Below, piece after piece: positions 24,674 to 39,170 of a stretch of 64,000 bases of DNA (positions are counted from its first letter, which is position 1; each line of letters starts with the position of its first letter). The position numbers and the translations under genes are program-made. The stretch covers positions 636,642 to 700,641 of the forward strand of contig NZ_UWPD01000001.1 in the NCBI RefSeq assembly GCF_900604965.1, read 5' to 3'. The notes below the pieces were generated by a model. That model did no database searches, was not told where the DNA came from, and was given only the letters and a program-made list of their open reading frames with translations. The stretch comes from Gordonibacter sp. Marseille-P4307 (lineage in GTDB: Bacteria; Actinomycetota; Coriobacteriia; Coriobacteriales; Eggerthellaceae).

Positions 24674-25058
24674 CCCGCCGCGCTCTCGGTTTCGCAGTTG
24701 CGCCCTTTTTCGGCGCCCTCTGCTGCTTTTCGATCTTCGGGCATGGTTCTTTTCCCTGTTTCCAAAAAAAAAGCGTTTCTTGCGGGTCGGGAAACGCCTT
24801 CTTCGTTCGTTTTATAGATGAAAGCGGAAATACGAGGCGGCAACGGCGCGGGCGAACATCTTCGGTCAGATGGCAACGGCGCGCGGTCGCGGCTAAGGAG
24901 GTATGCGGTGGGGATGGGCGACGAGCGAAACGACGAGGCACGGGCCCGACGAGCCGTGTCGCTGTACGCCAATCTTATCCTGCGGCTGATCGCGTGCCGA
25001 ATATTTGATATTATATCAAGATCCTATTTCGAAGGTGCAAGAAGAAGGAGCGTGCGTA
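24674..25058. other. 385-base gap without a convincing gene
   Basis: It contains a terminator-like hairpin (GCGTTTC at 24773-24779 with GAAACGC at 24791-24797, flanked by an A-run before and T-rich bases after, so possibly bidirectional). A perfect palindrome, TTGATAT-T-ATATCAA (25005-25019), lies about 40 bases before the surface protein start and may be an operator or promoter element. An open frame from 24818 was judged not coding. Confidence 0.6.
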
Positions 25059-26483
25059 GTGGAGAAGAGGAAAACCGTTCCCAGTTGCTTGCTGGCCCTA
25101 GCTTTGGCGAGTGGATTGAATCCGGCGACGGCTCTTGCGGAAGACGCATCCTCTGTCGATCGGGCAGAGTCCGTCGTGGCTTCGACGGACTCTGCATCCA
25201 TGGTGGAGAAGGCGTCCTCGCAGTTGGATGCACAGGAAAGCGTGGGACAAGAAGCTGCTGCCCCGAAGGCTCCTGCCAATCAGCAGATGACCATCAACTA
25301 CAAGTGGAACAAGAAAGATTCGAAGGGGTATTACAATCCTCAGGATGCGGGAAAGGATTTTTCATTTCGCATTTGGTACTCTCTGAGAGGAACAGATGAA
25401 AATGGAAAAAAAGGCACATTCTGGACCGGAGTGCAGACCATTACCGGGCAAGTTGGCGTAGATCAGACGGTCGCGTTCGATCTTTCCGAAGTGAAAGACC
25501 AGTATGGTAAGACTTGGACGAACTGCACATGGGAAGCTGCCCATTGGTCTCCCCTTACGGAAGATTCTCATACGTATTCGGTGGGAGAAAGCTATACGAC
25601 AACATCTCCGTTTACGACTGAATATTTGTTACAGCAGAACATGGAGACCAACGTCGCTATGAAAACAGCTGATGGAGCCATAGTCGCGCCCATGGATCTT
25701 AAAAGGCTTTTGATCGGTTACCACGTGACAAAAGACGGTGACACTAAGCCGTTGACGGCCAACAGCGGTAAAAACATCTCGGCTGAGGAGCTGTTTGAAA
25801 ATGGCAGCACTCTGGGTTTGTATAAGAAACCCCTCTTCAACGATGCAATCAACCAAAACTCATTGACCATGTTCAATCCCTACAATGACAACAAGACCAA
25901 CTACCAACTCAATTCCGCTTTCGCTGGAAGCGACAAGGAAGCGCTCGAGCAGCGTTACGGTCTCTCTCTTAGCGGAAACGACCTGAGTGGTTGGGTGCTC
26001 ACGCTGACATCGAAAGTCAAGAAGAGGCCTGTAATCACCAAGACCGATATTCCCGTTCCAGCCGAGATCGAGTACGTCGACGATCCCACGCTCGACGAGG
26101 GTGTCGAGGAAGTCGTGAGCGAAGGAGCTGCGGGGACGTCCACGACTACCTATGATGAATACTATCTGCCTGCAGTTGGTGGCGAACCGGAGAAGATTAT
26201 CGAAAAGACCGAGCCCAAGACCGCTACGGTGGACCCCACCAAGAAGAAGGTTCGTCGTGGCACCAAGCCGAAGGCTCCAATCGAAGATGAGGTTGCTCCC
26301 AAACCCGAGCCCATGCCACAGCTTGTTAAACCTGCTGTCTCTGAAAAGCCCGCGCTTGTCTCCAATGCGACGGAAATGCCCAAGACGGCAGACAATGCCC
26401 GGGATTGGTTCGCCCTCGCATCGTTCGGTTTCGTTTCGAGCGTCGCACTCGCCCTTTTCGCTCTCAGGAAGAGAAGGTCGTAG
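25059..26483 (+). CDS. Sortase-type surface protein with a G5-like domain
   Basis: The 474-residue product has a signal peptide (about residues 1-28, ending ATALAED), a unique region of about 290 residues rich in Asn, Lys and Thr, then a G5-like domain (roughly 320-410: IEYVDDPTLDEGVEEVVSEG, then TTTYDEYYLPAVGGEPEK, ending RRGTKPKAP). The C-terminus is a cell-wall sorting signal: MPKTAD (440-445), a hydrophobic helix and LRKRRS. The anchor motif starts with Met rather than Leu. GTG 25059 follows AAGGAG at 8 bases. G+C is lower here than in the core genes to the left. Likely adhesive; ligand unknown. Confidence 0.8.
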   Translation: MEKRKTVPSCLLALALASGLNPATALAEDASSVDRAESVVASTDSASMVEKASSQLDAQESVGQEAAAPKAPANQQMTINYKWNKKDSKGYYNPQDAGKDFSFRIWYSLRGTDENGKKGTFWTGVQTITGQVGVDQTVAFDLSEVKDQYGKTWTNCTWEAAHWSPLTEDSHTYSVGESYTTTSPFTTEYLLQQNMETNVAMKTADGAIVAPMDLKRLLIGYHVTKDGDTKPLTANSGKNISAEELFENGSTLGLYKKPLFNDAINQNSLTMFNPYNDNKTNYQLNSAFAGSDKEALEQRYGLSLSGNDLSGWVLTLTSKVKKRPVITKTDIPVPAEIEYVDDPTLDEGVEEVVSEGAAGTSTTTYDEYYLPAVGGEPEKIIEKTEPKTATVDPTKKKVRRGTKPKAPIEDEVAPKPEPMPQLVKPAVSEKPALVSNATEMPKTADNARDWFALASFGFVSSVALALFALRKRRS

Positions 26484-26542
26484 GACGGTCCATCTCGTTC
26501 TTTCTGCCAGGGTTTCTTGAGACGGGAATCAAGGCTATCAGT

Positions 26543-26579
26543 ATCGGGCATCGGAGAGAATCCGGTGCCCGATTTTCCT
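26543..26579 (+). terminator. Terminator after the G5 surface protein
   Basis: A 13-bp stem with one G-T pair, ATCGGGCATCGGA (26543-26555) with TCCGGTGCCCGAT (26561-26573), is followed by TTTCCTT. Confidence 0.85.
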
Positions 26580-26627
26580 TGAGATGCGAGGATCGCATTG
26601 CTTCAGGTGGTATTGTTTGCTCGTTAA

Positions 26628-26877
26628 GGGGGAGCGGGTCGCATCGACCTCATCGTTAGCCGGTTCATCTCGCTGACGGGAGAAGGCGAGCTCGTTCGCG
26701 CGAAACGCTACAGCCGCTATCTCGAACGTCGCCCCATCGATGATGTCATGTGGCAATTCAGCTACCTGATGATCAGGGGAATCATCCAATATCGCAGCGG
26801 CAACCTGGAGGAATCGAGGAAGAACCTCGAGAAGATGTACCATGTTTTTTATCGACGGGGAAGAATGGAGCAATGAG
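26628..26877 (+). pseudogene. Possible gene remnant before the peptidase gene
   Basis: An open frame with protein-like composition and no stop runs from 26628 to a TGA at 26875-26877. It has no start codon before ATG 26748, which would leave only 42 residues (MWQFSYLMIRGIIQ ... RRGRMEQ). The segment IQYRSGNLEESRKNLEKMY has the helical pattern of a TPR-like repeat. It ends 8 bases before the peptidase start, so it may be the tail of a decayed regulator or simply a leader ORF. Not recognised; low certainty. Confidence 0.3.
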
Positions 26878-26885
26878 GGTCGTTC

Positions 26886-28010
26886 ATGGCTGATGGTTTC
26901 GAGGGCGTTCAGATCGGCATCTCCCGCGGTGGAGTCACCATGACTCGCGATGGCAACACCGATTTCCTGCTTTACCCAGCAGCTCATGCAGTTGTTCGCA
27001 ATATTCAATCCATCGCTGGCTATCTGGTTGTGGTTCGCTGGGAGCATCTGGAAACCGTTCTGTACACGTTTTCGATAGCGAGGTTGGACGAAAAGCCGGG
27101 CGTCACGCGCTTCACCCCGTCTCGCCCGTTGTTGGTGACGGTCGACGCCGACGGTTGCCAGCTCGTGGCGGAGGACCCTGCGACCGAACCGGTCGCCTTC
27201 GACATCGATCTCGCCTCGATGCCGGATTCGATCAACTTTCCCAGCCTGCTGCGCGTTTCCACGGTCCCTTCATCTGCGGGTGGCGTTCCGATGCAGGCCA
27301 CTTTCCCCGATGATGGCAGCACCGGGCGCATCTTGATCACCGCGTATGCCGGGTTCGGGATTTGCCTGCCGATGAATTTCGACCCTTCGGTGCGTGATTG
27401 GCTGGAGGGCTCTGGGGCCTGGGCGCAGATCTTCGCACGCGGCGGTGGCGAATTGGGACGTGGCTGGCATAGGGCTGGCGCTGGGGCTGGGTCTCTGGCT
27501 GGTGCTGATGACATTTTGACAGTCGTGCGCTCGTTGCGTTCATCCGGTGCGGGGCGAGAGGTTTTCGGCTATGGGTTTTCACATGGCGCCACCCAGCTGC
27601 TCCGCGCGTTTCTGCTCGATCCGACGGCATTTGACAGGCTGGCTCTTTGGTCGCCTGCTGTGGAACTCTGCGAACCTGATGACTCTTGGCCACAGCTTTG
27701 GTGTGCCGAATACGGCGATGTCAGTTGTCCTGACGAGCGCACCGCCATGGTGAAAGCCTGCCCCACGGCGATGTTGCGCCACGTTCTCGAGATTTCTCCG
27801 GAATCTCTCGCCAATTGCCAGATCCTGATTCTTTCCAGCACTGATGACGATCGTGTGCCGCCTGCGCAGATCGCCGAATTCAGTTCTCTGCTTTCCATTG
27901 GAGCCGATGTGCGATTCCACCAGGTCGAATCCGCCGGTCACGCCGGACTGCACGATAACGTGCAGTCCGCAGTGCAGAGGCAATTGCTTTGGGATTTTCT
28001 TACCGCCTAG
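26886..28010 (+). CDS. Prolyl-oligopeptidase-like (S9 family) serine peptidase, short form
   Basis: The C-terminal half is a prolyl-oligopeptidase catalytic domain: the family stretch ARGGGELGRGWHRAG (about 185-199), nucleophile Ser232 in GYGFSHGATQ, acid Asp321 or Asp322 in TDDDRVPP, and His352 in SAGHAGLHD. LWCAEYGDVSCPDE also matches the family. At 374 residues it is about half the usual 700; only about 130 residues remain of the beta-propeller that normally restricts access. It heads the YcaO-peptide region. Prolyl oligopeptidases cut after Pro, and the peptide encoded at 32456 has a single Pro just before Cys-Cys, so it is a good candidate for leader removal. That role is inferred. Confidence 0.82.
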   Translation: MADGFEGVQIGISRGGVTMTRDGNTDFLLYPAAHAVVRNIQSIAGYLVVVRWEHLETVLYTFSIARLDEKPGVTRFTPSRPLLVTVDADGCQLVAEDPATEPVAFDIDLASMPDSINFPSLLRVSTVPSSAGGVPMQATFPDDGSTGRILITAYAGFGICLPMNFDPSVRDWLEGSGAWAQIFARGGGELGRGWHRAGAGAGSLAGADDILTVVRSLRSSGAGREVFGYGFSHGATQLLRAFLLDPTAFDRLALWSPAVELCEPDDSWPQLWCAEYGDVSCPDERTAMVKACPTAMLRHVLEISPESLANCQILILSSTDDDRVPPAQIAEFSSLLSIGADVRFHQVESAGHAGLHDNVQSAVQRQLLWDFLTA

Positions 28011-28019
28011 GTTGGCGGG

Positions 28020-28787
28020 CTAGGCTTTTTGGAACACGTGGATGCACATGGGGCTATCCTGGCTTGCAGGCGTGCCGTCCCAGTTCTGCCAAACTTCCGT
28101 CAATTCCAACCCCGCGTTGCTTCCCATCTGAATCAATTCGGAACGTTCGTTCCATCGCAATGCGGCAGTGTAGACATCTGGCGTTTTCCTGTCTTTCAGA
28201 AAGACGAAGGCTTGGGTGAATATATGCCTGTCCGGATGGTAAACCTCGTATGACAAGGTCACTTCCCCGGGGACGATTCGCATGATATGGGTGTGCTGCC
28301 CTTCGAGCCGGTAGCCGGAGGGATTCATGCATTCGACGATTAAGAAGCCGCCAGGCCTTAGATGCTCGGATGCTCGAAAGAAGAATTCCTGCTGCTTGTC
28401 GATCGTCAAGATGGTCTGGATTTCGAGCGCCAGGTTGAACACCAGGTCGAAAGTCTTTCCCAGGCGCATTTCGGCCGGATCGCCCAGATGGGTCACGACT
28501 CGATCGCTTCCCGGCTGTTCCTTGAGCTTGTTCAGCATCGCTTCATGACGTTCGATCGCTTCGATGCTGGAGCATTTGCCCACCAACGGCAGAACATGGC
28601 GGCCGGTTCCGACCGCCGTGCCCAGGATGTCGCCTCCTTTAGACAGCCGCAGCAGCTGTGCCACCGCCGGTTCGGTCTCCGGTCGATAGCCAAATTTTTC
28701 GTGCCAGCGGTCTGCCCATGGTTGGCTGTTGGAATAGTCGTTCAATTCGTCGAAGTCAACTCGATAATCAAGCACGTTATCCTCCAT
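28020..28787 (-). CDS. SAM-dependent methyltransferase (class I)
   Basis: A 255-residue class I methyltransferase. Motif I is DILGTAVGTGRHVLPL (53-68), followed by the acidic end of strand 2 at IEAIERHEAML, and the later HLRPGGFLIVECMNPSGY corresponds to motif III. The closest-looking group is the small-molecule methyltransferase fold (Methyltransf_11/25 type). It is transcribed towards the peptidase gene (the stops are 10 bases apart) and divergently from the ABC genes, sharing their 113-base control region. In this setting it may methylate the peptide product; the substrate cannot be read from sequence. Confidence 0.82.
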   Translation of the reverse strand: MEDNVLDYRVDFDELNDYSNSQPWADRWHEKFGYRPETEPAVAQLLRLSKGGDILGTAVGTGRHVLPLVGKCSSIEAIERHEAMLNKLKEQPGSDRVVTHLGDPAEMRLGKTFDLVFNLALEIQTILTIDKQQEFFFRASEHLRPGGFLIVECMNPSGYRLEGQHTHIMRIVPGEVTLSYEVYHPDRHIFTQAFVFLKDRKTPDVYTAALRWNERSELIQMGSNAGLELTEVWQNWDGTPASQDSPMCIHVFQKA

Positions 28788-28810
28788 TCCTCGATTTTTC
28801 GAAACAAATA

Positions 28811-28840
28811 TTAGACAAAACTAACTCATTTTGCTACTGT
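28811..28840 (+). promoter_or_regulatory. Control region of the ABC/peptide/YcaO operon with shared motif
   Basis: TTAG-N6-CTAA (28811-28824) runs into CTAACTCATTTTGCT (28821-28835), which recurs with one change upstream of the Fec-type operon at 37836. TTAGAC (28811-28816) and TACTGT (28835-28840) could be a weak -35/-10 pair with an 18-base spacer. The placement suggests a common repressor for both operons, possibly metal-responsive. Confidence 0.5.
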
Positions 28841-28900
28841 GCGGGATATGAGATGTTAGGAATGAATAACTGTCCATTCTATCTACTTGATTGGAGGAGC

Positions 28901-30649
28901 ATGCCTGACCGCGATATTCTCGGACTCGGCCGTGCCGGGTGGCTGCCGATGATCGCCTCCTTCTCCGTCGGTCTGCTCTTGTCCGGAATCTTGCTATGCC
29001 AAGCGTGGCTTCTATCGCGTATCTTCTCCACACTCTACTCATGGGATTTCTCGCATCTGGCGTTGCTTCTGGGGATGTTCGCCGTAGTGCTCTTGGTGCG
29101 CCCTCTCGTCATGCTCGTCCAAGAGCTGCTCGTCAGCCGAGTTGGCAGGAACATCAAGCTCGATGTCCGCGTTCAGTTGCTCGAGCATCTGAACAAGATG
29201 GGGCCCTTCGGCTTGTCCTCGAAGCGCACCGGCGAAGCCGAAGCGCTCGTCACCGATGGCGTCGAGCTGCTGGAGGATTATTACGGGCGCTATGTCCCGC
29301 AGTTGGGGGTCACCATCGTGACGGTGGTCGTGGCCATCGCCTTCTTGTTCGAGCTCGATCCCCTGGTTGCGCTCGTGGGTGGATGCGCGGCATTGCTCAC
29401 CCCGATCCTCCCAAGTCTGTGGAATAGGACGCTGAAGCGTCGCGGCTATCAACATTGGGACCAGTATTCCCAGATGAATGCCGAAGTGGTTGATGCAATG
29501 CAGGGCATGACGACCTTACAGCTCTTCAACAACGTGGAGCGTCAACGGGAAAAGATCGACTCTGCCGCCCAATCCCTTTTAGCCGCCACGTTATCGCAGA
29601 TGCGAACCTCTTTGTTGGGGTCGGCCATTTCGTCTTGGATGGTCAACGGCGGTCCCGTGATAGTGTTGACGCTGGGCATCATCCAGGCTTGGTATGGCTC
29701 TGTGGATATCGCACAACTTTTCTGGTGCCTTTTCCTCAGCTACGAGCTTTTCCGTCCTTTCCAAGATCTCAGCGCCCATTGGCACGCTGGCTTTCATGGC
29801 TATTCGACCGCACGGCAGGCACTCGAACTGCTGAAAGCTCGCACGCCTCACGATGACGATTTGCCAAACCAGGCACTTCCAACAACCTCCTTCGATATAT
29901 GCTTCGATCGGGTTTCGTACCGCTACCCGTCGACAGAATCGAATGCGGTCAGCGACGTTTCCCTCGATATCGAATCTGGCAAGACGGTCGCGTTGGTGGG
30001 GCAGTCTGGCTGCGGCAAGTCTACCTTGCTCGGGCTCCTGCTCAGATTCGGCGACCCGTCTGCTGGGCGGATCAGCATCGGCGGCGTCGACTTGCGCGCG
30101 CTTTCCCGCGACGACCTGTCTTCGCTCATCACGCTTGTTCCGCAGGAACCGGTCATCTTCAATGGAACCATCGCCGAAAACCTGCGTGCCTGTGCGCCAG
30201 AGGCCTCCGATCGACAGCTACGTGATCTGTGCCTTTCCCTCGGGCTCGATGATATCTCCCCCAGCATTGACGAGCTGCTCGACACTCCCGTGCGGGAACG
30301 TGGCGGCGGCGTTTCCGGCGGCCAGCGTCAGCGCCTGGCCATTGCTCGGGCTCTGCTCCGAAACACCCCGATCCTGCTGCTGGACGAAGCCACGTCGGCT
30401 CTCGATGCCAGAGCGGAACAACTCGTGCTGTCCACTATCGAAAACCACCGCAAAAAGCTATCCGGCCAGGGAAGGACCCTGACCGTCATCATGTCCGCCC
30501 ATCGGCTCGAGATGGTTCGGCCTGCCGACCTGATCGTCGTCTTGTCCCAGGGCAACCTTATCGAAATCGGCGACCATGAAAGCTTGCTGCTCCAAAACGG
30601 GGTCTATGCGGCCCTCGTCGGCACGGCTCGAGAGTTGGTCCGATCATGA
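28901..30649 (+). CDS. ABC half-transporter, membrane domain fused to ATPase (first of pair)
   Basis: The 582-residue protein has an N-terminal six-helix exporter-fold membrane domain (about 1-310) and a C-terminal ATPase with Walker A GQSGCGKST (about 367), SGGQRQRLAIARAL and LLLDEATSALD. It looks like CydD or the YbtP/IrtA group, whose members import siderophores despite the exporter fold. ATG 28901 sits right after GGAGGAGC; a start 16 codons upstream is possible. Its stop overlaps the next gene by 4 bases (ATGA), so the two form a heterodimer. Co-location with a YcaO enzyme and Fec-type genes favours a role in handling the peptide product, either export or uptake. Confidence 0.9.
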   Translation: MPDRDILGLGRAGWLPMIASFSVGLLLSGILLCQAWLLSRIFSTLYSWDFSHLALLLGMFAVVLLVRPLVMLVQELLVSRVGRNIKLDVRVQLLEHLNKMGPFGLSSKRTGEAEALVTDGVELLEDYYGRYVPQLGVTIVTVVVAIAFLFELDPLVALVGGCAALLTPILPSLWNRTLKRRGYQHWDQYSQMNAEVVDAMQGMTTLQLFNNVERQREKIDSAAQSLLAATLSQMRTSLLGSAISSWMVNGGPVIVLTLGIIQAWYGSVDIAQLFWCLFLSYELFRPFQDLSAHWHAGFHGYSTARQALELLKARTPHDDDLPNQALPTTSFDICFDRVSYRYPSTESNAVSDVSLDIESGKTVALVGQSGCGKSTLLGLLLRFGDPSAGRISIGGVDLRALSRDDLSSLITLVPQEPVIFNGTIAENLRACAPEASDRQLRDLCLSLGLDDISPSIDELLDTPVRERGGGVSGGQRQRLAIARALLRNTPILLLDEATSALDARAEQLVLSTIENHRKKLSGQGRTLTVIMSAHRLEMVRPADLIVVLSQGNLIEIGDHESLLLQNGVYAALVGTARELVRS

Positions 30650-32400
30650 AGCACGTTGCATTTCGCGAAGCGTTCGAACCCCTTCTTCGGCTTTTGCCAA
30701 GACTCGCATGCTACAGAAAATACATCGTGCTCATCTTCGCGATGCTTCTGCTGCATCGCGTCTGCGTGACCGTTCTCAACGTATTGGGCGCCGCGCTCGT
30801 CTCGCACGTCATGCTCGTCAATCATGTAGACGGCCTTGCCTGGTGGGTATTAGCGGGCCTGGCAATCCTGGTCGTATCGATCGGGGTGACCTGGTGGTTG
30901 GACATGTGGTTCGCCCATGTCTACAGCTACAAGATAATCGCAGACCTTCGCATCGACATATACGATGCCATCAACAGGATAAGCCCTTCCGGGCTGCAGC
31001 ACAGGACGACGGGAGACATTACCGCTGCAGCCATGTCCGATGTCGAAATCACCGAATGGTTCTACGCCCATACCGTAATCGATTCTCTGGCCACGCTTGC
31101 AGTCAACGTGATCTTCACTGCGGTGATGATCGTCCTGGTCGGTCCGTCCGGGGCGGTCTTGCTTGTGGCCACCACGGCGATTTTACTAGTGCCGATCTTC
31201 ACCCTGCCCTTGCAGAATAGGCAGGGCGAGAACATCCGGCAGAGCCTGGCTAGGCAGAAGAGCAGATCCTTGGAGATGATCCAGGGGTCACGCGAGATCA
31301 CCAGCCTTGGATTGGTCGAGAGGCAGTTGGACGTGATTCGGGAATCCACCTTGGAGGTTCAGCGGTGCAAGCGCAGCTATATCGTACGTTCGGGCATAGA
31401 GATTGCAATCTCCCAGCTGATGGTTTCGGTTGCGACCATAGGTACTCTTGCCTGGCTCCTTGCGCTGAACCAGACTGGTAGCGTGGAATTGGTCTATATA
31501 CCGTCTGCGATGATGCTGCTCAGCGCATCTTGCAAAGCCTGCCTGAGCTTGTCGAGCATGTTGCGCAAGCTCGGTGAGGTTTCCGGCGCCGCCCGCAGGT
31601 TCTTCGAGTTGGTTGGCATGCCCCAGCAGATTCCAGACGAAGGCGAGCCGGCAGATTTTCCCGACGGGGCATTGGGTATCGAATACCATGATCTGACCTT
31701 CGGATACTCCGATGGTACCAAGGTACTGGACGATTTCGACCTTTCGATCGAGGCAGGTTCCTCGGTGGCGCTCGTCGGTCGGACCGGAGTCGGCAAGTCC
31801 ACGATCGCTGCATTGACCGTGAGACTCTATCGACCACGGTCTGGCAGCATCTGCATCGATGGCAGGCCAATCGATTCGATCCCGCTCGACCAATTACGAA
31901 ACCTCGTGACGCTCGTACCGCAGCATCCATATATCTTCCGCGGCACCGTTCGAGACAATCTGCGCATGGCCAAGTTGGATGCTTCCGATGACGAGCTTTG
32001 GCGGGCGCTTGAGATCGCCCAGCTAGACGATGTGGTTCGCAGGCTGCCCAACCAGATGGACACCTTGATAGGAGAGCGCGGCGCGACCCTTTCGGGCGGA
32101 CAGAGGCAGCGTCTCAGCTTGGCTCAAGCGTTCCTGAAGAATTCCCCGATCGTCATCTTGGACGAGGCCGTATCGAATCTCGATCCGAATTTGGAGCAGA
32201 GGCTCATCGAGGCGGGCCGGTTCATCTACGAAGGTCGAACCATTATAACCATCGCACATCGTCTTTCCACCATACGCTCGGCAGATTCGGTGGCCTTCAT
32301 CGAGGACGGCAAGATTCTCGCTTTTGGGGCTCACGAACAACTGCTGAGGGATTGCCCACGTTATCGTGCCTTCATGGAACCTGCAACTGGTGCCATGTAG
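30646..32400 (+). CDS. ABC half-transporter, membrane domain fused to ATPase (second of pair)
   Basis: The 584-residue partner of the preceding gene has six membrane helices in residues 20-310, then an ATPase with Walker A GRTGVGKST (about 377), Q-loop LVPQHPYIFRGTVRDNL, signature LSGGQRQRLSLAQAF, Walker B IVILDEAVSNLD and His switch TIAHRLSTI. Walker B ends in AVSNLD and keeps the catalytic Glu. The start ATG overlaps the previous stop. The peptide gene begins 55 bases after its stop. The pair resembles YbtQ/IrtB and CydC; direction of transport is not shown by the sequence. Confidence 0.9.
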   Translation: MKHVAFREAFEPLLRLLPRLACYRKYIVLIFAMLLLHRVCVTVLNVLGAALVSHVMLVNHVDGLAWWVLAGLAILVVSIGVTWWLDMWFAHVYSYKIIADLRIDIYDAINRISPSGLQHRTTGDITAAAMSDVEITEWFYAHTVIDSLATLAVNVIFTAVMIVLVGPSGAVLLVATTAILLVPIFTLPLQNRQGENIRQSLARQKSRSLEMIQGSREITSLGLVERQLDVIRESTLEVQRCKRSYIVRSGIEIAISQLMVSVATIGTLAWLLALNQTGSVELVYIPSAMMLLSASCKACLSLSSMLRKLGEVSGAARRFFELVGMPQQIPDEGEPADFPDGALGIEYHDLTFGYSDGTKVLDDFDLSIEAGSSVALVGRTGVGKSTIAALTVRLYRPRSGSICIDGRPIDSIPLDQLRNLVTLVPQHPYIFRGTVRDNLRMAKLDASDDELWRALEIAQLDDVVRRLPNQMDTLIGERGATLSGGQRQRLSLAQAFLKNSPIVILDEAVSNLDPNLEQRLIEAGRFIYEGRTIITIAHRLSTIRSADSVAFIEDGKILAFGAHEQLLRDCPRYRAFMEPATGAM

Positions 32401-32455
32401 CAGCTGCAAATATGCACGAGGTACGCGAACGAGTAATGCAAAGGAGGTGATATCC

Positions 32456-32545
32456 ATGCTCGACGTGACGATCAACATGATCGAAGAGGACGCAAGCGAA
32501 CGTCTGGTGGCCCCGTGCTGCCATGCGACCTCGACCGCCAATTAG
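32456..32545 (+). CDS. Candidate RiPP precursor peptide (29 residues)
   Basis: An ATG preceded by AAAGGAGGTGATATCC, about the strongest ribosome site in the window, opens a 29-codon gene. The first 20 residues (MLDVTINMIEEDASERLVAP) look like an acidic leader; the tail is CCHATSTAN. Cys21, Cys22, Thr25, Ser26 and Thr27 are the residues that a YcaO cyclodehydratase could convert to thiazolines and (methyl)oxazolines. The single Pro20 sits right before Cys21 and matches the cutting preference of the prolyl-oligopeptidase-like protein encoded upstream. It lies between the ABC genes and the YcaO gene, the usual place for a precursor. Identification rests on position, ribosome site and composition, not on a known homologue. 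Confidence 0.72.
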   Translation: MLDVTINMIEEDASERLVAPCCHATSTAN

Positions 32546-32626
32546 CTTCTAGCTAATTGAGTGCTGGGAGGGTCGGGAAGCCCCGTGATGCTCGTTGCTC
32601 ACGTGGGTGCTTCCTGGCCCTTTTTT
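32540..32626 (+). terminator. Hairpins between peptide gene and YcaO gene
   Basis: AATTAGCT-tct-AGCTAATT (32540-32558) is a perfect inverted repeat spanning the stop codon. A second stem pairs GGAAGC+CCC+GTGA (32576-32588) with TCAC+GGG+GCTTCC (32599-32614, small bulges) and is followed by a T6 run at 32621. This arrangement could let most transcripts stop after the peptide gene, giving far more peptide than enzyme. Confidence 0.65.
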
Positions 32627-32656
32627 ACGGATAGGGGCCTTTTGGAGGGGTTCTGT

Positions 32657-34828
32657 ATGGAATTGAACTTGCTGGCAGATTTCGGTCTTGAGGTGGCTCC
32701 TTCTTTCGAATTGCGGGAGTTGCCGCATCGCAGTACGTTGCTCACCGACGCGGCTTCGACCCACTATGTGATCGAGCTACCGCTTTCCCAGACGCTTTCC
32801 TTCTATCGATCTTGGCAAGCTGGCGAACGGGATGTTCCCGACAGCTTGAGAGATCTATTTACCACATCGCAACAGCTTTATGAGCGGCTATGCCGTCAAT
32901 ACGGGCTCTTGGATCCGGCAAATCTCATCGCATCTGATGAGAGCCGCTCGGATGCGAAGTATCTTCTGGCGGGAAATCCGTCGCTGGGGCGTCTTCTGAT
33001 GGAAAATTCCGGCAGGATGGATCTGGAGGTTTGCGCACTTCCCGATGATGAGGTGTTGCACATGGCTTTTTCCTCTGGTGCGACGCCTATCAGGTTGGAG
33101 CCTCAGATGGACGAGCTTGCGTTTGGTCATTTCGACCAGCTTGCGCGCAATTATCGTTTCCCATGGTGTCCTCTGGTCTGGCGGCGCGACTCACTGTGGC
33201 TTGGCCCTATGTTTTCTTCCGGCGAGGGTCCGTCATGGACCGATTTGCAACGGCGTAGGATAGCGGCTCAGTTCAACGAGCCTATAGCTCGCGCCCTTCA
33301 ACGTCCATCGGTCACGGGCCCTGTTATGATGATCGGCGTCGAGGCGCTGAAGCATGCCGTCCAGCTGTTGCCAAGCTTGGAATCGGGGCTCATGCTGGAA
33401 ATAGGACTCGATGGAACGGTGACCGAACATACCGTCCTGGCATGGCCGGCTCGACTTGATGCCACTCGCGCCAAGGTAGAGCCGCAACAGCTCGTTTCAC
33501 CTGAATGCGGCATCATTCGCCGGCTTCGCAAGATTAAGCATCATCCTGATCTACCTAGTCGCATCGTTACCTATCAAGCGGATATGTCATTCATACAAAG
33601 AGTATCTTCATGGAATTGCGCCTATACCTGCGAGGGGTCTTCATGGGGTGATCCCGGTCAAGCGTATTTCGCTGCTTTGGGAGAATCTTGCGAGCGTTAT
33701 GCGGGCAATGCATTGGATACGCTGCCGGTAATGCAGGGCTCGTTCAGCGAATTGCGAAGAAAGGGGATCGATGTGCTCTCTCCGGAATCCATCGTCTTGT
33801 TCCGGGATGAGGATTATCGGCGACCTGGATTTCCATTCGCGCCATTCACCAGGGATTTACCTGTTGGATGGGTGCCGGCAAGATATTTGGACACCGATGA
33901 ATCCGTCATGGTTCCGGCATCGTTGACCTATTCGAATTGGCATTCATACCCCAACGGCTTCGAAAAGCCATTGCTGAAATGCCCGTTCGCCGGGATAGCG
34001 GCTGGCAGCAGCTACGAGAATGCGGTTTGCAGCGCGATCGAGGAAGTGATCGAGCGTCATGCGACGATGACATGGTGGCTTACGGGCATCAGGTTACCTG
34101 GTCTGGAAGTGTCGGGCGAGTTGCTGGCACAGCTCGGCGAATTCCCAGACTATCAGGAAATCTTCCTGACGCGCCTGGAAAACGTGTTCGGCTTCCCCGT
34201 CGTCTGCGCAACAGTGCTCAATCATCGTTGGAAGACGATCAACATGGGCTTCGCCGCTCGGCCTGCTGAACGGGATGCTGCGTTGAAGGCGCTGTTGGAG
34301 GCATTCAGCTTGCAAGAGGGAAGCATCGACCTGCTCGACCAATCCGGCTCTCACTGGAATGCTATTGCGGGTGGCCGGTTGCCGCGCGGCGGGTTGCGCG
34401 CATACCGGCAAGATCGCGCGTATGCAAAGGATTATGCACCTGATTTTTCGGATTGCACTGACCTCATGGCGCAGCAGCAGTATTATCTTGATCCCAGCAC
34501 ACATGAAGCTGTCATGTCAATCGTCAGGTCAGATGCGGTTTTGCCCTTGGAAAACGAGAATCGAATCTCGCGGGGAGTTTCTAATTACGTGACATTACTT
34601 GCCGAACAGGGCTTTAGACCGATTGTGGTTGACCTTACCCCACCCGATATATCCCAGAGTGGCATTAAGGTGGTTCGCGTCATTGTTCCCGGAACCGTGA
34701 TGAATTCTCCGGCGGCTTTCCCTCATCTGGGAAACGATGCCGTGCGTCATACAGCGGAGAAGTTGGGATGGATCGATGATGTGCAGGCTTCGATAAATTG
34801 GAATCTGCGCCCCCTCCCGCACGCTTGA
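32657..34828 (+). CDS. YcaO-domain cyclodehydratase fused to an N-terminal partner domain
   Basis: The 723-residue protein has a YcaO domain in about residues 300-723. It shows the ATP/Mg-binding motifs QAYFAALGESCERYAG (Glu343, Glu346), AVCSAIEEVIERHA (Glu462/463, Glu466) and ALLEAFSLQE (Glu548, Gln553). The C-terminus is RPLPHA, close to the PxPxP end typical of azoline-forming YcaO enzymes. Residues 1-290 resemble a degenerate E1-like partner (C protein): WLGPMFSSGEGPSWTDLQRR recalls its GPL..PG..PC..C segment but has no zinc cysteines; this part may bind the leader. Such enzymes use ATP to turn Cys/Ser/Thr into azolines. No flavin dehydrogenase is nearby. ATG 32657 follows GGAGGGG. Confidence 0.88.
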   Translation: MELNLLADFGLEVAPSFELRELPHRSTLLTDAASTHYVIELPLSQTLSFYRSWQAGERDVPDSLRDLFTTSQQLYERLCRQYGLLDPANLIASDESRSDAKYLLAGNPSLGRLLMENSGRMDLEVCALPDDEVLHMAFSSGATPIRLEPQMDELAFGHFDQLARNYRFPWCPLVWRRDSLWLGPMFSSGEGPSWTDLQRRRIAAQFNEPIARALQRPSVTGPVMMIGVEALKHAVQLLPSLESGLMLEIGLDGTVTEHTVLAWPARLDATRAKVEPQQLVSPECGIIRRLRKIKHHPDLPSRIVTYQADMSFIQRVSSWNCAYTCEGSSWGDPGQAYFAALGESCERYAGNALDTLPVMQGSFSELRRKGIDVLSPESIVLFRDEDYRRPGFPFAPFTRDLPVGWVPARYLDTDESVMVPASLTYSNWHSYPNGFEKPLLKCPFAGIAAGSSYENAVCSAIEEVIERHATMTWWLTGIRLPGLEVSGELLAQLGEFPDYQEIFLTRLENVFGFPVVCATVLNHRWKTINMGFAARPAERDAALKALLEAFSLQEGSIDLLDQSGSHWNAIAGGRLPRGGLRAYRQDRAYAKDYAPDFSDCTDLMAQQQYYLDPSTHEAVMSIVRSDAVLPLENENRISRGVSNYVTLLAEQGFRPIVVDLTPPDISQSGIKVVRVIVPGTVMNSPAAFPHLGNDAVRHTAEKLGWIDDVQASINWNLRPLPHA

Positions 34829-34839
34829 GAAAAAACGAA

Positions 34840-34882
34840 CCACCCGCTTAGCGGACGGTCTTGGGGGGGTGGCTTACTCCTT
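34840..34882. terminator. Terminator between convergent YcaO and Fec-type operons
   Basis: AACCACCC pairs with GGGTGGCTT a short distance later, followed by ACTCCTTTTTTG; on the other strand an A-rich AAAAAACGAA precedes the stem, so it may act in both directions. Confidence 0.6.
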
Positions 34883-34904
34883 TTTTGATCCTTCGGTTCG
34901 AATC

Positions 34905-35684
34905 TCAGGACTCGAGTGGGAGCATGACGAGCTGTATTACCCCATCCACGACAAAACGGTTGATGGACATCTTGTAGACGTCTTCTATCAGGTCTGCACG
35001 TAGGATTTCATCCGGAGTTCCCATGTCGATCACCTTGCCATGATCGAGAACCGCCAGGTAGTCGCAGTAGCGTGCAGCAAGGTTCAGGTCATGCAGGACC
35101 ACTACCGCCGAGAAGTTCTTCTTGCGCACAGTTTGCAGGATCTTGTGCTGCTGGAAGACATCGAGATGGTTCGTCGGTTCGTCCAAGAGCAGGACATCGG
35201 TTTTCTGGGTCAGGGCCCGCGCCAACATGGTGCGCTGGTATTCGCCGCCGCTTATCTCGGTGATCGGGCGGTGTTGGATTTCCTCTATTCCCAGCTCGGC
35301 AAGAGCTTCGTCCACGATGGATTCGTCTTTCGCAGTGAATCCATCGAGCACGTTATGATGAGCTGCGCGACCCAAGCGCACATACTCGCGGATCGTCAGC
35401 GGAATCGATGCGGATTCCGTCTGAACCACGACGGCCATCTGTTTAGCCAGCCCTCTCGTGGAGTAGCTGCCCAGGTCGTTGCCGATGAATGTGATTTTGC
35501 CGGACGTGGGGCTTAAGGAACGGTAGAGGCATTTCAGGAACGTGGATTTGCCCGAACCGTTCGGTCCGATTATCCCAAAGATGCAATCTTTGGGAATGGA
35601 GAGGCAAACCCCGGTCAAAGTGGGGTTTGCCTCGCGAATTCCCGCGTAACGAAACGTTATGTCCTCGCAGCTGAAGAGTGTCAT
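34905..35684 (-). CDS. FecE/BtuD-type ABC ATPase for metallophore import
   Basis: A 259-residue ATPase of the iron-siderophore/heme/cobalamin import family. It has Walker A GPNGSGKST, the Q-loop region MAVVVQTESASIPLTIREYV, the signature ISGGEYQRTMLARAL, Walker B VLLLDEPTNHLD and HDLNLAARYCDYLAVLDHGK, all typical of FecE/FepC. It is the last gene of a three-gene operon read in the order permease, binding protein, ATPase. The whole importer lies next to the YcaO-peptide genes and shares a promoter motif with them. Confidence 0.92.
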   Translation of the reverse strand: MTLFSCEDITFRYAGIREANPTLTGVCLSIPKDCIFGIIGPNGSGKSTFLKCLYRSLSPTSGKITFIGNDLGSYSTRGLAKQMAVVVQTESASIPLTIREYVRLGRAAHHNVLDGFTAKDESIVDEALAELGIEEIQHRPITEISGGEYQRTMLARALTQKTDVLLLDEPTNHLDVFQQHKILQTVRKKNFSAVVVLHDLNLAARYCDYLAVLDHGKVIDMGTPDEILRADLIEDVYKMSINRFVVDGVIQLVMLPLES

Positions 35685-35690
35685 GAAGCT

Positions 35691-36707
35691 CTATTTCAAC
35701 GAGTCGGAAATAGCCTGCATCGCAGGTATGATTGCCGGCGTGGGCCAGATGTTATGGTTGGAGATGCCGACGATCTTATCATTCTTGACCGCTTTCATGG
35801 TGTCGGCGCCGGGTTCGGTGAGCAGGCGGGCCTTGTCTTCCTCGAAGGTGGAGCCGGTGCGACCATACTTGATGATGATCACGTCCGGGTCTTTTTCAAG
35901 GATCGTCTCCCAGTTCACTTCTTCGACGTAAGGGGCCTTTTCGTCAGCGAAGATGTTTTCCAGTCCCAAGCGCTCCATCATCTGACCTTCGATGCTCGCA
36001 TTGCTGACGGACATCACGGGATATTCTGGGGAGAAATAGAAGAGCAACGCCGCAGTTTTCCCTTTGCCGGGCTTTTCCTTGTCGAACTGGGCCAGTTTCT
36101 TCTCGAATTCCGCAGCTTTCTCTTCACCGCGTTTCGGTTGTCCCATAACTTTGCCAAGTTCACGCAAATCGCTGCTGATGAGCTCGAAGGGGCTTTCATC
36201 TGGAACTTGCAGGGAGTCAGCGCCGTCTGCCTTGGCATGAACGACGATGGAATTGGGAACTATTACCTTGATTCCGGCTTCTTCCACCTTTTTGGGGTCG
36301 AATCCGGTGAAGGTATCGGTAATGACCAGATCCACATCTTGGGAGATGATGCTTTCCGTGCTGAGCTCGCCATCCGAGAGGATTTTTGCTCCCATTGCGT
36401 CCGCTTCTGGATTGGGGTCTTTGAATTCGCCCGAACGATAGGCGAACTGTCCTTGCTCTGCCAGTTCAGCAGCATAGATGGCAGACGTCGGGCCAGAGGT
36501 GAGAATCTTTTCCGGTGCCTTGTCGAAGGCGACTTCACGACCGCCATAATTGTAGGTCATGGGGTAGGCAGCATCTGCGGATGCCGATGCCGATGGTGCT
36601 TCGACCGACTCGTTGCCGGTGCTCGAGCAGCCCATGAGTCCGCCCATCAGCAAGGCGCTGACAGTTAGGGTCGCCCCCAGTCGTTTGAACATCGTTGTCT
36701 TTTTCAT
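35691..36707 (-). CDS. FecB/BtuF-type substrate-binding lipoprotein
   Basis: The 338-residue protein has a lipoprotein signal with lipobox LMGC (Cys about residue 27). The mature part is a helical-backbone binding protein: MTYNYGGREVAFDKAPEKIL opens the first lobe, STESIISQDVDLVITDTF and EKDPDVIIIKYG are the conserved strands, and the long central helix is present. These proteins bind ferric siderophores, heme or cobalamin; specificity cannot be read. Asn/His/Trp-rich SNHNIWPTPA near the end may be part of the ligand site. Its start overlaps the permease stop and has a strikingly purine-rich ribosome site. Confidence 0.9.
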   Translation of the reverse strand: MKKTTMFKRLGATLTVSALLMGGLMGCSSTGNESVEAPSASASADAAYPMTYNYGGREVAFDKAPEKILTSGPTSAIYAAELAEQGQFAYRSGEFKDPNPEADAMGAKILSDGELSTESIISQDVDLVITDTFTGFDPKKVEEAGIKVIVPNSIVVHAKADGADSLQVPDESPFELISSDLRELGKVMGQPKRGEEKAAEFEKKLAQFDKEKPGKGKTAALLFYFSPEYPVMSVSNASIEGQMMERLGLENIFADEKAPYVEEVNWETILEKDPDVIIIKYGRTGSTFEEDKARLLTEPGADTMKAVKNDKIVGISNHNIWPTPAIIPAMQAISDSLK

Positions 36708-37771
36708 TTCCTTCCTTTCCTTCCTTTCCTAGGTCCTTTCTTTCCGACATTCAGTGCACTGCCCTGGCTGTACTGCCGGCGCACCAATGCGATGAGGACA
36801 GGGGTTCCAACCAGCGCGGTGATGATACCGAGGGGTATTTCCCTTGGCTGGAAAGCAATTCGTCCGATAACGTCCGCCCAGACCATCAAAACCGCGCCAA
36901 GCAGTGCGGATATGGGGATTACGGATCGGTTGGTGGCGCCCACCAACCGGCGTGCCGCATGGGGGATTACCAGACCCACGAAGCCAATTTGACCAGCTAC
37001 CGAGACCAGAACGGCGATGCAAGCCGATACCAGGAGCATGCTCGCCATCCTGAGGCGTTGTGGATTGAAGCCACTGATCTGCGCGGTTTCGTCCGACACG
37101 GACATGGCATCCAGACCTGACCCCATTCCCATTCCGATAATTGTCGTTATCAGCAGTGCAAGGGCTGGGAGCAGCATCTGATCCCAGTTCGCAAGAGTCA
37201 GAGAACCGAGCATCCAGAACATCACCGAGCGGGCTGCTCCTTCGTCGCCTGATGCAAAGACCATCAGATTGGTAAGAGCCGTCATGGCGAATCCGATTGT
37301 AACGCCCGCCAAAATCACGCGACTGGATGTCAAACTACCGCCTGTCGAGGCTATGGCGAACGTCGCGACCGTGGCTATGACTGCACCTATGAAGGCTGCA
37401 CCTGCCAATCCGAACGCGCCGCTGATTCCAAATACCAGGACGGTTGCCGCTCCAGCAGATGCTCCCGAAGCGGTGCCCAGCAGATAGGGGTCTGCCAGGA
37501 CGTTTCGTACCAGGCTTTGCATGATGGCTCCGCAAACCGAAAGGCCAGCTCCAACGATTGCGGCGAGCATTATGCGCGCGCCGCGCACTTCCCAGATGAT
37601 CACCTCTTCGCGTTGGCTGAACGAGCCGGGACTGCCGGAAATCTTGCTCCAGAAAACTTCCAGGATGGTGCGAGGCGAAACGTGTGCGAACCCGATGCCG
37701 AACGCCATGAATATCGAGACGATCAATAGGGCAGATCCTGCAAAAGTTAATAAAATCGCACGTCGGTTCAT
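36704..37771 (-). CDS. FecCD-family ABC permease
   Basis: A 355-residue permease with about ten membrane helices. GARIMLAAIVGAGLSVCGAIMQSLVRNVLADPYLLG (the family signature after helix 2) and GQIGFVGLVIPHAARRLVG (the ATPase-contact loop) are diagnostic for FecCD/BtuC permeases. It is first in the operon, and the binding protein and ATPase follow with overlaps or a 6-base gap. The last residues (KGPRKGRKGRK) are encoded by a purine repeat that also serves as the next gene's ribosome site. The single permease gene implies a homodimer. Confidence 0.93.
   Translation of the reverse strand: MNRRAILLTFAGSALLIVSIFMAFGIGFAHVSPRTILEVFWSKISGSPGSFSQREEVIIWEVRGARIMLAAIVGAGLSVCGAIMQSLVRNVLADPYLLGTASGASAGAATVLVFGISGAFGLAGAAFIGAVIATVATFAIASTGGSLTSSRVILAGVTIGFAMTALTNLMVFASGDEGAARSVMFWMLGSLTLANWDQMLLPALALLITTIIGMGMGSGLDAMSVSDETAQISGFNPQRLRMASMLLVSACIAVLVSVAGQIGFVGLVIPHAARRLVGATNRSVIPISALLGAVLMVWADVIGRIAFQPREIPLGIITALVGTPVLIALVRRQYSQGSALNVGKKGPRKGRKGRK
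36712..36729 (-). repeat. Polypurine tandem repeat at permease/binding-protein junction
   Basis: TTCCTTTCC occurs twice in tandem (GGAAAGGAA on the coding strand) with a further TTCC next to it. It encodes the basic tail of the permease and forms the ribosome site of the binding-protein gene. Confidence 0.8.
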
Positions 37772-37835
37772 TTGCAGACTGTCCTCATTCTCGTATCTTT
37801 AAACGGGCTGTCCGAATTGTTAGCCGAGACTTATT

Positions 37836-37871
37836 CTAACTCGTTTTGCTTGATAAGTTAGCTGATTCTAA
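37836..37871 (-). promoter_or_regulatory. Control region of the Fec-type operon with shared motif
   Basis: CTAACTCGTTTTGCT (37836-37850) differs by one base from the motif at 28821. TTAG-N6-CTAA (37858-37871) follows. Both lie 65-100 bases upstream of the permease start codon. The CTAAC/GTTAG half-sites recall DtxR/IdeR-type iron-box halves but do not match that consensus in full. Confidence 0.5.
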
Positions 37872-38112
37872 TTAATTGATCGTAGAAACGGGTGAATGGT
37901 CTTATCTCCGAAGGGAAAGGCTAACTCGAAAGAAACAGGTGGATTTGAGGGGAAGCCAATGGGGGTTTTGGCTCGAGATCACTGCACAATCCTCCATTAT
38001 TACAAAGTGGGTGCGATTGATGTAGGCGGGCTAGCTGCATTTTGCCCCTGTTCCCCCCGCTATTCTGTGGGAGAATGAATGAGTAGGCATTACCTAACTT
38101 CAAGGAGCCAAT
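37872..38112. other. AT-rich gap upstream of a membrane methyltransferase gene
   Basis: A 60-codon open frame (37896-38078) ends in a Gly-Gly-containing segment and CPCSPRYSVGE, but it lacks a good ribosome site. Otherwise I see only promoter-like AT-rich sequence; AAGGAG just before 38113 belongs to the next gene. Confidence 0.4.
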
Positions 38113-38604
38113 ATGAGCAAAGAAGAAAGCCATTTGCCCCTGTTTGGCCCCGGACCAGCATATGTCATGACGATAGCCTTGCTCACCGTTGCCGGGATCG
38201 CGCTTTCGACATTAGGATTTTTGCCCGTGGCTAGCGCGGGTGCCGCTTCTGTGGTACTTACGGTGCTTGGTTTTGCCTTCATGGTCGGGGGAGTCGCGTT
38301 GTGGATGACGGCTGTGATTGGCGCTCGCATCGACCGGGGGATCAAGTCGAATCGACTCGTCACCGATGGCATCTATGCTTTCGTGCGCAATCCCGTCTAT
38401 TCCGCTTTCATGTTCCTATGCACGGGCATCGTTTTCGCCTTCGGCAACCTCTGGCTGCTCGTCCTGCCTTTCGTGTTCTGGGCGGTTCTCACCATCTTCA
38501 TGAAGGCTACTGAGGAGAAATGGCTATCTGGCCTCTATGGTCAGGATTACGCTGACTACTGCAAGCGCGTGAACCGCTGCATTCCCTGGTTCCCAGGAGG
38601 ATAG
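38113..38604 (+). CDS. Isoprenylcysteine/phospholipid methyltransferase-family membrane protein
   Basis: A 163-residue integral membrane protein with four hydrophobic segments. The family motif is at GIYAFVRNPVYSAFMFLCTG (RNPxY) and the C-terminal EEKWLSGLYGQDYADYCKRVNRCIPW, which bind SAM in ICMT/PEMT-type enzymes. Bacterial members methylate varied lipids or small molecules; the substrate here is unknown. Its closeness to the YcaO region could mean a role there, but it lies beyond the shared control regions and may be independent. A clear AAGGAG precedes the ATG. Confidence 0.8.
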   Translation: MSKEESHLPLFGPGPAYVMTIALLTVAGIALSTLGFLPVASAGAASVVLTVLGFAFMVGGVALWMTAVIGARIDRGIKSNRLVTDGIYAFVRNPVYSAFMFLCTGIVFAFGNLWLLVLPFVFWAVLTIFMKATEEKWLSGLYGQDYADYCKRVNRCIPWFPGG

Positions 38605-38974
38605 GCTGCTTGCCCCCGCTTATGAAGCTCCTGAGGTGCGATACGTCATCATCGCGCTGGCGGTGCTGGCGGCGTCGAATGCATGCAAGGATCTGCTGCG
38701 GTCGCGCCGCAGCATGCGGATCGTAGCGCTGGATCAGGCACCCGAAATGGCCGCTCCTGAGCCCGACTAGGCGTATCGAGAGGTTTTCGATCGCATGATG
38801 GATCTGCCCGTCGGATATCGCGAGGCGCTGTTTTTCCATTATGTCGAAGGGTATTCGGCTGCCGAGATTTCCCATATGCAGGGCAAGTCGGAATCTGCCG
38901 TATTCAAGGCCTTGAGCCGCGGGAGGCAGATGATCCGCGAGTCGATCGGAGGAGGGCAAGATGAGCGATCGTAG
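38605..38974 (+). pseudogene. Broken ECF-type sigma factor gene
   Basis: In a single frame, SNACKDLLRSRRSMRIVALD is followed by APEPD, a TAG stop (38768-38770), then AYREVFDRMMDLPVGYREAL and a complete sigma region 4 helix-turn-helix (EGYSAAEISHMQGKSESAVF). Both sides are clearly parts of one ECF sigma factor; a GAG-to-TAG change would explain the stop. Region 2 is absent because the frame runs straight into the preceding gene, so the N-terminal part was lost too. A shorter product of 59 residues from ATG 38796 could still be made, but it would lack core RNA polymerase binding. The small ORF at 38961 overlaps its end. Confidence 0.72.
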
Positions 38975-39170
38975 GACGGACGGTTTTACGGAGCGAGAGG
39001 CCGATGCGGTGGTGGGCGATGCGCATGGGTATGCGGTGGTGTACAGCATCAGCCGCGACGATGGCGGGACGGTTATCTGGTCTCGCAACGTGTTCTTCGA
39101 TCGGATCATCGATCCAAGCGAGGTGGCATCGGTGGAGATCGGCGGTGCATCCATCAAGCCGCTGGCTTAG
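38961..39170 (+). CDS. Small hypothetical protein after the sigma remnant
   Basis: A 69-residue soluble protein (MSDRRTDGFTEREADAVVGD ... GGASIKPLA) starting at an ATG with GGAGGAGGGCAAG upstream, overlapping the sigma remnant by 14 bases. That overlap is typical of an operon partner of the former sigma factor, such as an anti-sigma or accessory protein, possibly shortened. No known domain is recognised; the ribosome site and overlap are the evidence. Confidence 0.5.
   Translation: MSDRRTDGFTEREADAVVGDAHGYAVVYSISRDDGGTVIWSRNVFFDRIIDPSEVASVEIGGASIKPLA

What the first reader, a model, noticed from the sequence alone, without database searches (positions are those of the whole stretch)
26886..37771. 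Candidate ribosomal thiazoline-peptide metallophore system: peptidase, methyltransferase, YbtPQ-like ABC pair, precursor, YcaO and Fec-type importer
Seen: a YcaO cyclodehydratase with intact ATP motifs, a 29-residue peptide gene with Pro-Cys-Cys-His, a prolyl-oligopeptidase-like peptidase, a methyltransferase, two fused ABC half-transporters and a complete FecBCD-type importer in about 11 kb. Known: YcaO enzymes make thiazolines; yersiniabactin, a nonribosomal thiazoline metallophore, is imported with the fused ABC pair YbtP/YbtQ; FecBCD-type systems import metal chelates. Inference: a two-Cys, His-containing, thiazoline-bearing peptide would be a compact metal ligand, so the cell may make a ribosomal counterpart of such chelators and take it back. 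I know of no described system with this exact make-up, but I could not search.
Basis: partly seen in the sequence, partly recalled or inferred. Interest (0 to 1): 0.92.

Follow-up and report, generated by a model that had tools for sequence, protein, structure and literature searches.

The report
Ribosomal peptide metal-scavenging cassette with importer
A gut-type bacterium carries a recently inserted 13.7-kb DNA island that appears to make a short enzyme-modified Cys/His-bearing peptide and a dedicated importer to take it back, under a shared iron-type switch; related cassettes across several phyla suggest an unrecognised family of ribosomally made metal scavengers, although metal binding itself has not been shown.

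Summary
The window holds an S9 peptidase, a methyltransferase, an ABC pair, a 29-aa peptide (MLDVTINMIEEDASERLVAPCCHATSTAN), a fused RRE/E1-like–YcaO enzyme and a FecB-FecCD-FecE importer. It is a 13.7-kb, lower-GC island inserted in a sigma-factor gene that a close congener keeps uninterrupted.

The metallophore inference gains support. Relatives in Actinomycetota, Chloroflexota and Acidobacteriota share the fused YcaO and a previously unmodelled precursor family (…[LV]AP-x(0-3)-H…). All 12 members of the closest clade keep a Fec importer, whose tree mirrors the YcaO tree; three Gram-negative members carry a TonB-dependent receptor instead. In this genome, biosynthetic and importer promoters share an exact AGTTAGN6CTAA box (9 genome hits, several at siderophore- and heme-type genes); the closest relatives have IdeR/DtxR-like boxes, others Zur-like boxes.

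Corrections: architecture of this type is already described (streptamidine BGCs, PMC8442711), where metal binding was sought and not found; thiazoline chemistry is unproven; YbtPQ likeness is not specific; the importer is a separate, convergent operon here. The precursor fails the streptamidine models and the YcaO lies outside that clade. Verdict: a new variant of the streptamidine-like YcaO RiPP clusters, most likely a metallophore, probably iron-responsive here.

The parts
24990..38667 (.). Acquired island (13.7 kb, GC 0.555 against 0.617 for flanks) inserted in an ECF-type sigma-factor gene
   Evidence: In congener G189 (79-86% DNA identity) window 22342-24988 and 38668-39008 lie 122 bp apart, with an uninterrupted frame across the join
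26886..28010 (+). S9 (prolyl-oligopeptidase family) serine peptidase; candidate leader peptidase cutting near the conserved Ala-Pro
   Evidence: PF00326 53 bits; GFSHG, Asp and His motifs by eye; homologue (30%) in Rhodococcus streptamidine locus L004
28020..28787 (-). SAM-dependent methyltransferase
   Evidence: PF13649/PF08241; weak daptide_MTase similarity, 45.6 bits, cut-off 175; homologues beside YcaO in L032 and L048-L051
28811..28826 (.). Putative DtxR-type iron box (AGTTAG-N6-CTAA, minus strand) between methyltransferase and ABC1
   Evidence: One of 9 exact matches in the 1.81-Mb genome; control pattern 1
28901..30649 (+). ABC half-transporter 1 (fused membrane and ATPase domains)
   Evidence: PF00664+PF00005; RBS TTGGAGGAGC-ATG at 28901; pairs with ABC1 of related loci
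30646..32400 (+). ABC half-transporter 2; with ABC1 the probable exporter
   Evidence: PF00664+PF00005; pairs with ABC2 of related loci
32456..32545 (+). Precursor peptide MLDVTINMIEEDASERLVAPCCHATSTAN
   Evidence: same position and LAP..H motif in 24 of 26 clade loci
32566..32626 (+). Strong hairpin plus T-run between precursor and YcaO; partial terminator that would favour precursor over enzyme
   Evidence: Fold -47.5 kcal/mol, z -3.2; followed by TTTTTT
32657..34828 (+). Fused RRE/E1-like-YcaO cyclodehydratase (723 aa; longest frame starts at 32561)
   Evidence: PF02624 182 bits; model pLDDT 85.8 matches LynD Z 33.2, MusD 30.8, TruD 29.7
34905..35684 (-). FecE-type ATPase
   Evidence: PF00005 111 bits; homologues in related loci
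35691..36707 (-). FecB-type substrate-binding lipoprotein
   Evidence: PF01497 89 bits; 34% to the Solirubrobacteraceae locus protein
36704..37771 (-). FecCD permease
   Evidence: PF01032 292 bits; groups with L030/L032 permeases (98/97), 51% identical, against 28-32% to own-genome paralogues
37856..37871 (.). Putative DtxR-type iron box (AGTTAG-N6-CTAA) upstream of the importer operon
   Evidence: Exact genome-wide match; overlaps the only 13/19 IdeR-consensus match in the 64-kb window

Best explanation
The island encodes a ribosomally made, YcaO-modified peptide metallophore and its own uptake system. When iron is scarce, a DtxR-type repressor leaves the two boxes and both operons are expressed. 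The fused enzyme binds the precursor leader and, with ATP, cyclises backbone positions in the short Cys/His tail after the conserved Ala-Pro, giving an azoline or an amidine. The leader is removed near Ala-Pro by the S9 peptidase or by the YcaO itself, the methyltransferase may cap the peptide, the ABC pair exports it, and the FecB-FecCD-FecE importer takes back the metal complex. Shown by sequence comparison: the gene set, the precursor family, the fused-enzyme fold, co-inheritance of importer and YcaO, the shared promoter boxes, and the insertion. Inferred: every biochemical step, the metal, and the direction of the ABC pair.
For: Importer in 12/12 closest and 20/26 wider relatives; TonB-dependent receptors directly downstream in three Acidobacteriota members. 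FecCD tree mirrors the YcaO tree and excludes own-genome paralogues. Gene order varies while linkage persists: downstream on the same strand, divergent, or convergent. Exact AGTTAGN6CTAA boxes at both promoters (9 in 1.81 Mb, control 1); other sites precede an ABC pair and a PPTase/SDR/thioesterase cluster, and one-mismatch sites a NEAT/Fec heme locus. IdeR-like boxes (14/19) in L030/L032; Fur/Zur-like boxes in eight further loci; a COG0523-type CobW gene in the L024 operon. Invariant His and frequent further His/Cys in the precursor tails. LynD/TruD/MusD-like fold.
Against: Streptamidine, from clusters of similar make-up, bound no tested metal, and its null mutant showed no metal phenotype (PMC8442711). 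No product has been seen. Six of 26 clade members lack a FecCD importer within the DNA held. In this genome the importer is a separate convergent operon. The iron box is defined by comparison only. Only this one of 299 genomes searched in the order has the YcaO.
Confidence: 0.6

Rival explanations
1. Streptamidine-type RiPP whose product is not a metallophore: the Fec-type importer takes up the peptide itself, or a cofactor or inducer needed for its synthesis, and the role is signalling or another unknown.
For: In the streptamidine cluster, deleting amiF1-F4 abolished production, no metal binding or antimicrobial activity was found, and the mutant was unaffected by metal starvation (PMC8442711). 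Architecture and precursor spacing (LA-x4-H) are similar.
Against: Precursor fails NF040714/NF040715, YcaO lies outside the streptamidine clade; iron- and Zur-like boxes plus TonB-dependent receptors point to metal supply.
Confidence: 0.2
2. Two unrelated iron-regulated modules on one island: an ordinary Fec-type siderophore or heme importer next to an antimicrobial RiPP cluster.
For: Importer is a separate convergent operon with its own promoter; the genome has several other FecCD systems.
Against: Linkage and tree agreement across 12 loci with different gene orders; same box at both promoters.
Confidence: 0.1
3. Azoline peptide antibiotic or Trojan-horse toxin that mimics a metallophore; the importer gives uptake or self-protection.
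For: YcaO RiPPs are often antimicrobial (established knowledge); a dedicated ABC exporter is present.
Against: Short His-rich cores without a Ser/Thr/Cys-rich azole tract; no immunity gene recognised; metal-type boxes.
Confidence: 0.07

Closest known systems
Streptamidine-family RiPP clusters (amiA-F, amiT1-T2; NF040714; PMC8442711)
   Same: YcaO, E1-like partner, short precursor with LA-x4-H spacing, two ABC half-transporters, FecBCDE-type importer and a hydrolase; importer permeases of L004/L029 fall in the same broader clade (95/91).
   Different: Here partner and YcaO are fused, the YcaO is in another clade, the precursor has LVAPCCHATSTAN with no ALV motif, there is no AmiE dehydrogenase, and iron-type boxes are present.
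Cyanobactin-type fused heterocyclases LynD, TruD and MusD
   Same: Domain order and fold of the E1-like and YcaO domains and a Pro-rich C-terminus (PLPHA).
   Different: About 20% identity; different precursor and neighbours; no cyanobactin proteases.
Methanobactins, bufferins, bulbicupramide
   Same: Ribosomal peptides shown or proposed to bind metal (PMC12538549).
   Different: Made by MNIO enzymes, not YcaO; copper-centred.
Yersiniabactin system (YbtPQ) and coelibactin
   Same: Metallophore logic with dedicated transport and metal control.
   Different: Nonribosomal; the ABC pair here is no closer to YbtPQ than to CydDC-type exporters.

Membership tests
Streptamidine family RiPP | Precursor matches NF040714 or NF040715 | tested here: not met
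   No NCBIfam match for the window peptide nor any RiPP model match for eight relatives; Rhodococcus AmiA scores 66.5 bits
Streptamidine family RiPP | ALV motif shared by motifs A and B | tested here: not met
   Absent from MLDVTINMIEEDASERLVAPCCHATSTAN
Streptamidine family RiPP | Standalone YcaO in the streptamidine clade with separate AmiB | tested here: not met
   Fused 723-aa protein; tree separates it from L004/L026/L027 (100/99)
Streptamidine family RiPP | FecBCDE-type importer and two ABC half-transporters in the cluster | tested here: met
Streptamidine family RiPP | Flavin-dependent dehydrogenase AmiE | tested here: not met
   No such gene among the island ORFs; the paper notes many family clusters lack it too
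Streptamidine family RiPP | Amidine ring in the product | not testable with these tools
   Needs the isolated product
Azoline-forming fused YcaO cyclodehydratases (LynD/TruD/MusD) | E1-like domain fused to YcaO | tested here: met
   VIA-align Z 33.2, 30.8, 29.7 over residues 97-723
Azoline-forming fused YcaO cyclodehydratases (LynD/TruD/MusD) | N-terminal RRE binding the leader | tested here: inconclusive
   Three strands plus helices in the model, but the isolated domain found no clear PDB match
Metallophore systems | Dedicated metal-chelate uptake conserved with biosynthesis | tested here: met
Metallophore systems | Metal-responsive promoter | tested here: inconclusive
   Box sequences found, no binding or expression data
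Metallophore systems | Product binds metal | not testable with these tools
   Needs the product; the related streptamidine showed none (PMC8442711)
Methanobactin/bufferin RiPPs | MNIO (DUF692) enzyme | tested here: not met
   None among the island ORFs scanned

The most novel reading that the evidence does not exclude
A widespread, previously unrecognised family of YcaO-made ribosomal metallophores with cores starting at a conserved Ala-Pro and bearing His (or Cys plus His), in at least three bacterial phyla. Metal use has shifted between lineages: zinc (Zur-like boxes, NxNHHxH cores) in most, iron (DtxR/IdeR-like boxes, Cys-containing cores) in this genome and the Propionibacteriaceae.
Probability: 0.45. 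Interest if true: 0.87.

Novelty: new variant of a known kind. Interest (0 to 1): 0.73.

Why it matters
Known ribosomal metallophores (methanobactins, bufferins) are made by MNIO enzymes and centre on copper. If these YcaO cassettes make iron or zinc carriers, they add a genetically encoded class of metallophores and offer an answer to why so many YcaO clusters, streptamidine included, carry Fec-type importers, a question the streptamidine study left open after finding no metal binding. The Cys/His-rich relatives and culturable hosts (Cellulosimicrobium, Oerskovia, Microbacterium, Nonomuraea) make the question directly testable.

Tried and rejected
Single-sequence scans for the YcaO in genome and viral contigs found nothing; an alignment query succeeded. 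The YcaO was not found in 298 other genomes of the order, and whole-locus DNA search in relatives gave only short matches, mostly in the ABC genes. Rejected: membership in the streptamidine precursor family. Rejected: a specific YbtPQ relationship. The isolated N-terminal domain gave no fold match, so the RRE is left open. Paper searches for zincophore/RiPP/YcaO, precursor motifs, Zur with RiPP, and TonB with YcaO found no description of this family; the library is open-access only. With one mismatch the iron-box pattern is not enriched over its control, so only exact matches carry weight.
Full report
1. What is there. Two starts are better placed downstream of the longest frames: ABC1 at 28901 (TTGGAGGAGC-ATG) and YcaO at 32657 (TTGGAGGGGTTCTGT-ATG). 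The 29-aa peptide has the strong site AAAGGAGGTGATATCC-ATG. Between peptide and YcaO lies a hairpin of -47.5 kcal/mol (z -3.2) followed by six T, a layout that would give more precursor than enzyme transcript (inference). The importer is on the other strand, convergent to YcaO; the methyltransferase is divergent from ABC1, and the peptidase converges on it.

2. It is an insertion. Congener G189 shares the flanks at 79-86% DNA identity, but window 24989-38667 is missing and only 122 bp lie there instead. In G189 that spot is part of an uninterrupted frame resembling an ECF-type sigma factor (by eye); in the window the two halves are separated by the island. Island GC is 0.555 against 0.617 for the flanks. 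The YcaO was found in no other genome of 299 searched in the order. The cassette was therefore probably gained horizontally.

3. Relatives. A protein search in plasmids gave a Rhodococcus rhodochrous locus annotated as streptamidine family, with Fec importer, S9 peptidase, hydrolase, YcaO and ABC pair. An alignment-based scan of 84,980 species gave 70 loci. The nearest, two Propionibacteriaceae MAGs, have ABC-ABC-peptide-YcaO-FecD-FecB-FecE on one strand (one contig starts inside ABC2), and the complete one has the methyltransferase too. Cellulomonas, Oerskovia, Aeromicrobium, Microbacterium, Mobilicoccus, Glycomyces and Cellulosimicrobium have the importer divergent from ABC-ABC-peptide-YcaO. 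A Solirubrobacteraceae locus has CobW-peptide-YcaO-ABC-ABC-FecD-FecB-FecE on one strand.

4. The precursor family. At the same place before YcaO, 24 of 26 clade members encode a short peptide with [LVI]AP followed by a His-bearing tail, for example VAPHCHHTQTTF, LAPNSNHHGHVATAFSWA, LAPNSNHHSHSTVGISFSWAL, VAPHNHSTGFRAFRWS. Ala19 and His23 (window numbering) are invariant and Pro20 nearly so in an alignment of 20 that includes Rhodococcus AmiA, whose LA-HLSATH fits the same spacing. This suggests distant common origin with streptamidine precursors, but no NCBIfam RiPP model recognises the new ones. L085, in another part of the tree, has an intermediate-looking peptide with VHTNSHNHALVENPFAW. The 15-member sister clade (mostly Streptomyces) has neither the precursor nor the importer in the DNA held.

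5. Enzyme. The AlphaFold2 model (pLDDT 85.8, pTM 0.86) matches LynD, MusD and TruD over residues 97-723 (Z 33.2, 30.8, 29.7). Residues 16-81 look like an RRE, but the isolated domain gave no confident match. Relatives share the ExxER and EExxER motifs and the PxPHA end. MusD is deposited as a YcaO with ATP-dependent peptidase activity (PDB 7u58 title), which offers a way to remove the leader in relatives that lack a peptidase gene (inference).

6. Importer co-inheritance. In the YcaO tree the window joins L030/L032 (100/97) inside a 12-member clade (100/99) in which every locus has a FecCD importer. In the FecCD tree the window permease joins the L030/L032 permeases (98/97), and the same 12 loci form a clade (100/98); own-genome paralogues fall outside at 28-32% identity against 41-51% for the RiPP-linked ones of this clade. 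Three Gram-negative Acidobacteriota members without a FecCD importer carry a TonB-dependent receptor directly downstream of their second YcaO. An importer kept through rearrangement, and an outer-membrane receptor where an outer membrane exists, is what a take-back system would show.

7. Regulation. In this genome AGTTAGN6CTAA occurs exactly nine times in 1.81 Mb (control pattern: once). Two of the nine are the methyltransferase/ABC1 promoter (window 28811) and the importer promoter (37856). Others precede an ABC pair and a PPTase/SDR/thioesterase cluster; one-mismatch sites precede a NEAT/Fec heme locus. Not every site is metal-related: one lies near a cell-wall-binding surface protein, another near an amidinotransferase-like gene. 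The core TTAG-N6-CTAA is that of the DtxR/IdeR box (consensus from general knowledge), and the genome has one DtxR-family repressor. L030 and L032 carry 14/19 IdeR-like boxes. Most divergent promoters of the other clade members carry TGATAAnCATTnTCA-like boxes (11-14 of 15 in eight of nine loci, against a background where about 4% of 500-bp stretches reach 11). The assignment to Zur rests on general knowledge of actinobacterial Zur boxes and on the COG0523-type CobW gene in L024, a class listed among Zur-regulated genes (PMC6103462). It remains an inference.

8. What it is. The best reading is a ribosomal metallophore cassette, with the metal probably iron in this organism. The main counterweight is experimental: streptamidine, from a related cluster, bound no metal tested and its mutant had no metal phenotype, while its importer genes were needed for production. 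The precursors here differ in the relevant respect, having Cys and His or several His where streptamidine has HLSATH. After cleavage behind Pro the window peptide would start Cys-Cys-His, an N-terminal X-X-His pattern known to bind Cu(II) and Ni(II) in other peptides (general knowledge; speculative here). Cleavage behind Ala, as in streptamidine, would leave Pro first.

9. Novelty. The architecture class is known from the streptamidine work; that study looked only at standalone YcaO proteins, so this fused clade and its precursors were outside it. No paper found here describes them. I rate it a new variant of a known kind, with a plausible path to a new functional class.

Noticed in passing
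window 38113-38604: A PEMT/ICMT-type membrane methyltransferase gene lies inside the island, with a 12/19 IdeR-like match just upstream (38079); whether it acts on the peptide is unknown.
   Followed up: partly
window 25005-26483: A G5-domain surface protein with a C-terminal LPxTG-like sorting signal also belongs to the island; lowest GC of the region (0.495).
   Followed up: no
window 26640-26877: An open frame without a start (RIDLIVSRFISLTGEG...RRGRMEQ) just before the peptidase gene, probably a gene remnant.
   Followed up: no
window 24900-25020 and 38668-39000: The two separated parts of the sigma-factor-like gene that the island splits; the right part also differs from G189 by an in-frame stop.
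   Followed up: yes
G000:C2 1365500-1370500 (L143): A PPTase/SDR/thioesterase/MFS cluster with four exact iron-type boxes, possibly a siderophore cluster of the same organism.
   Followed up: partly
L085: A Thermoanaerobaculia locus whose peptide contains VHTNSHNHALVENPFAW, combining the streptamidine-like ALVENPF end with an HNH stretch; a possible link between the families.
   Followed up: no
L047:6865-7065: A Chloroflexales precursor with two tandem leader-core units (RRWDKAIAPNHNHHTVPAAQWG / QRWDKAIAPNHNHHTVPGPQWG).
   Followed up: no
L031, L033-L035, L037-L040, L042: A second, more distant YcaO-like protein follows the fused YcaO in these actinobacterial loci but not in the window.
   Followed up: no
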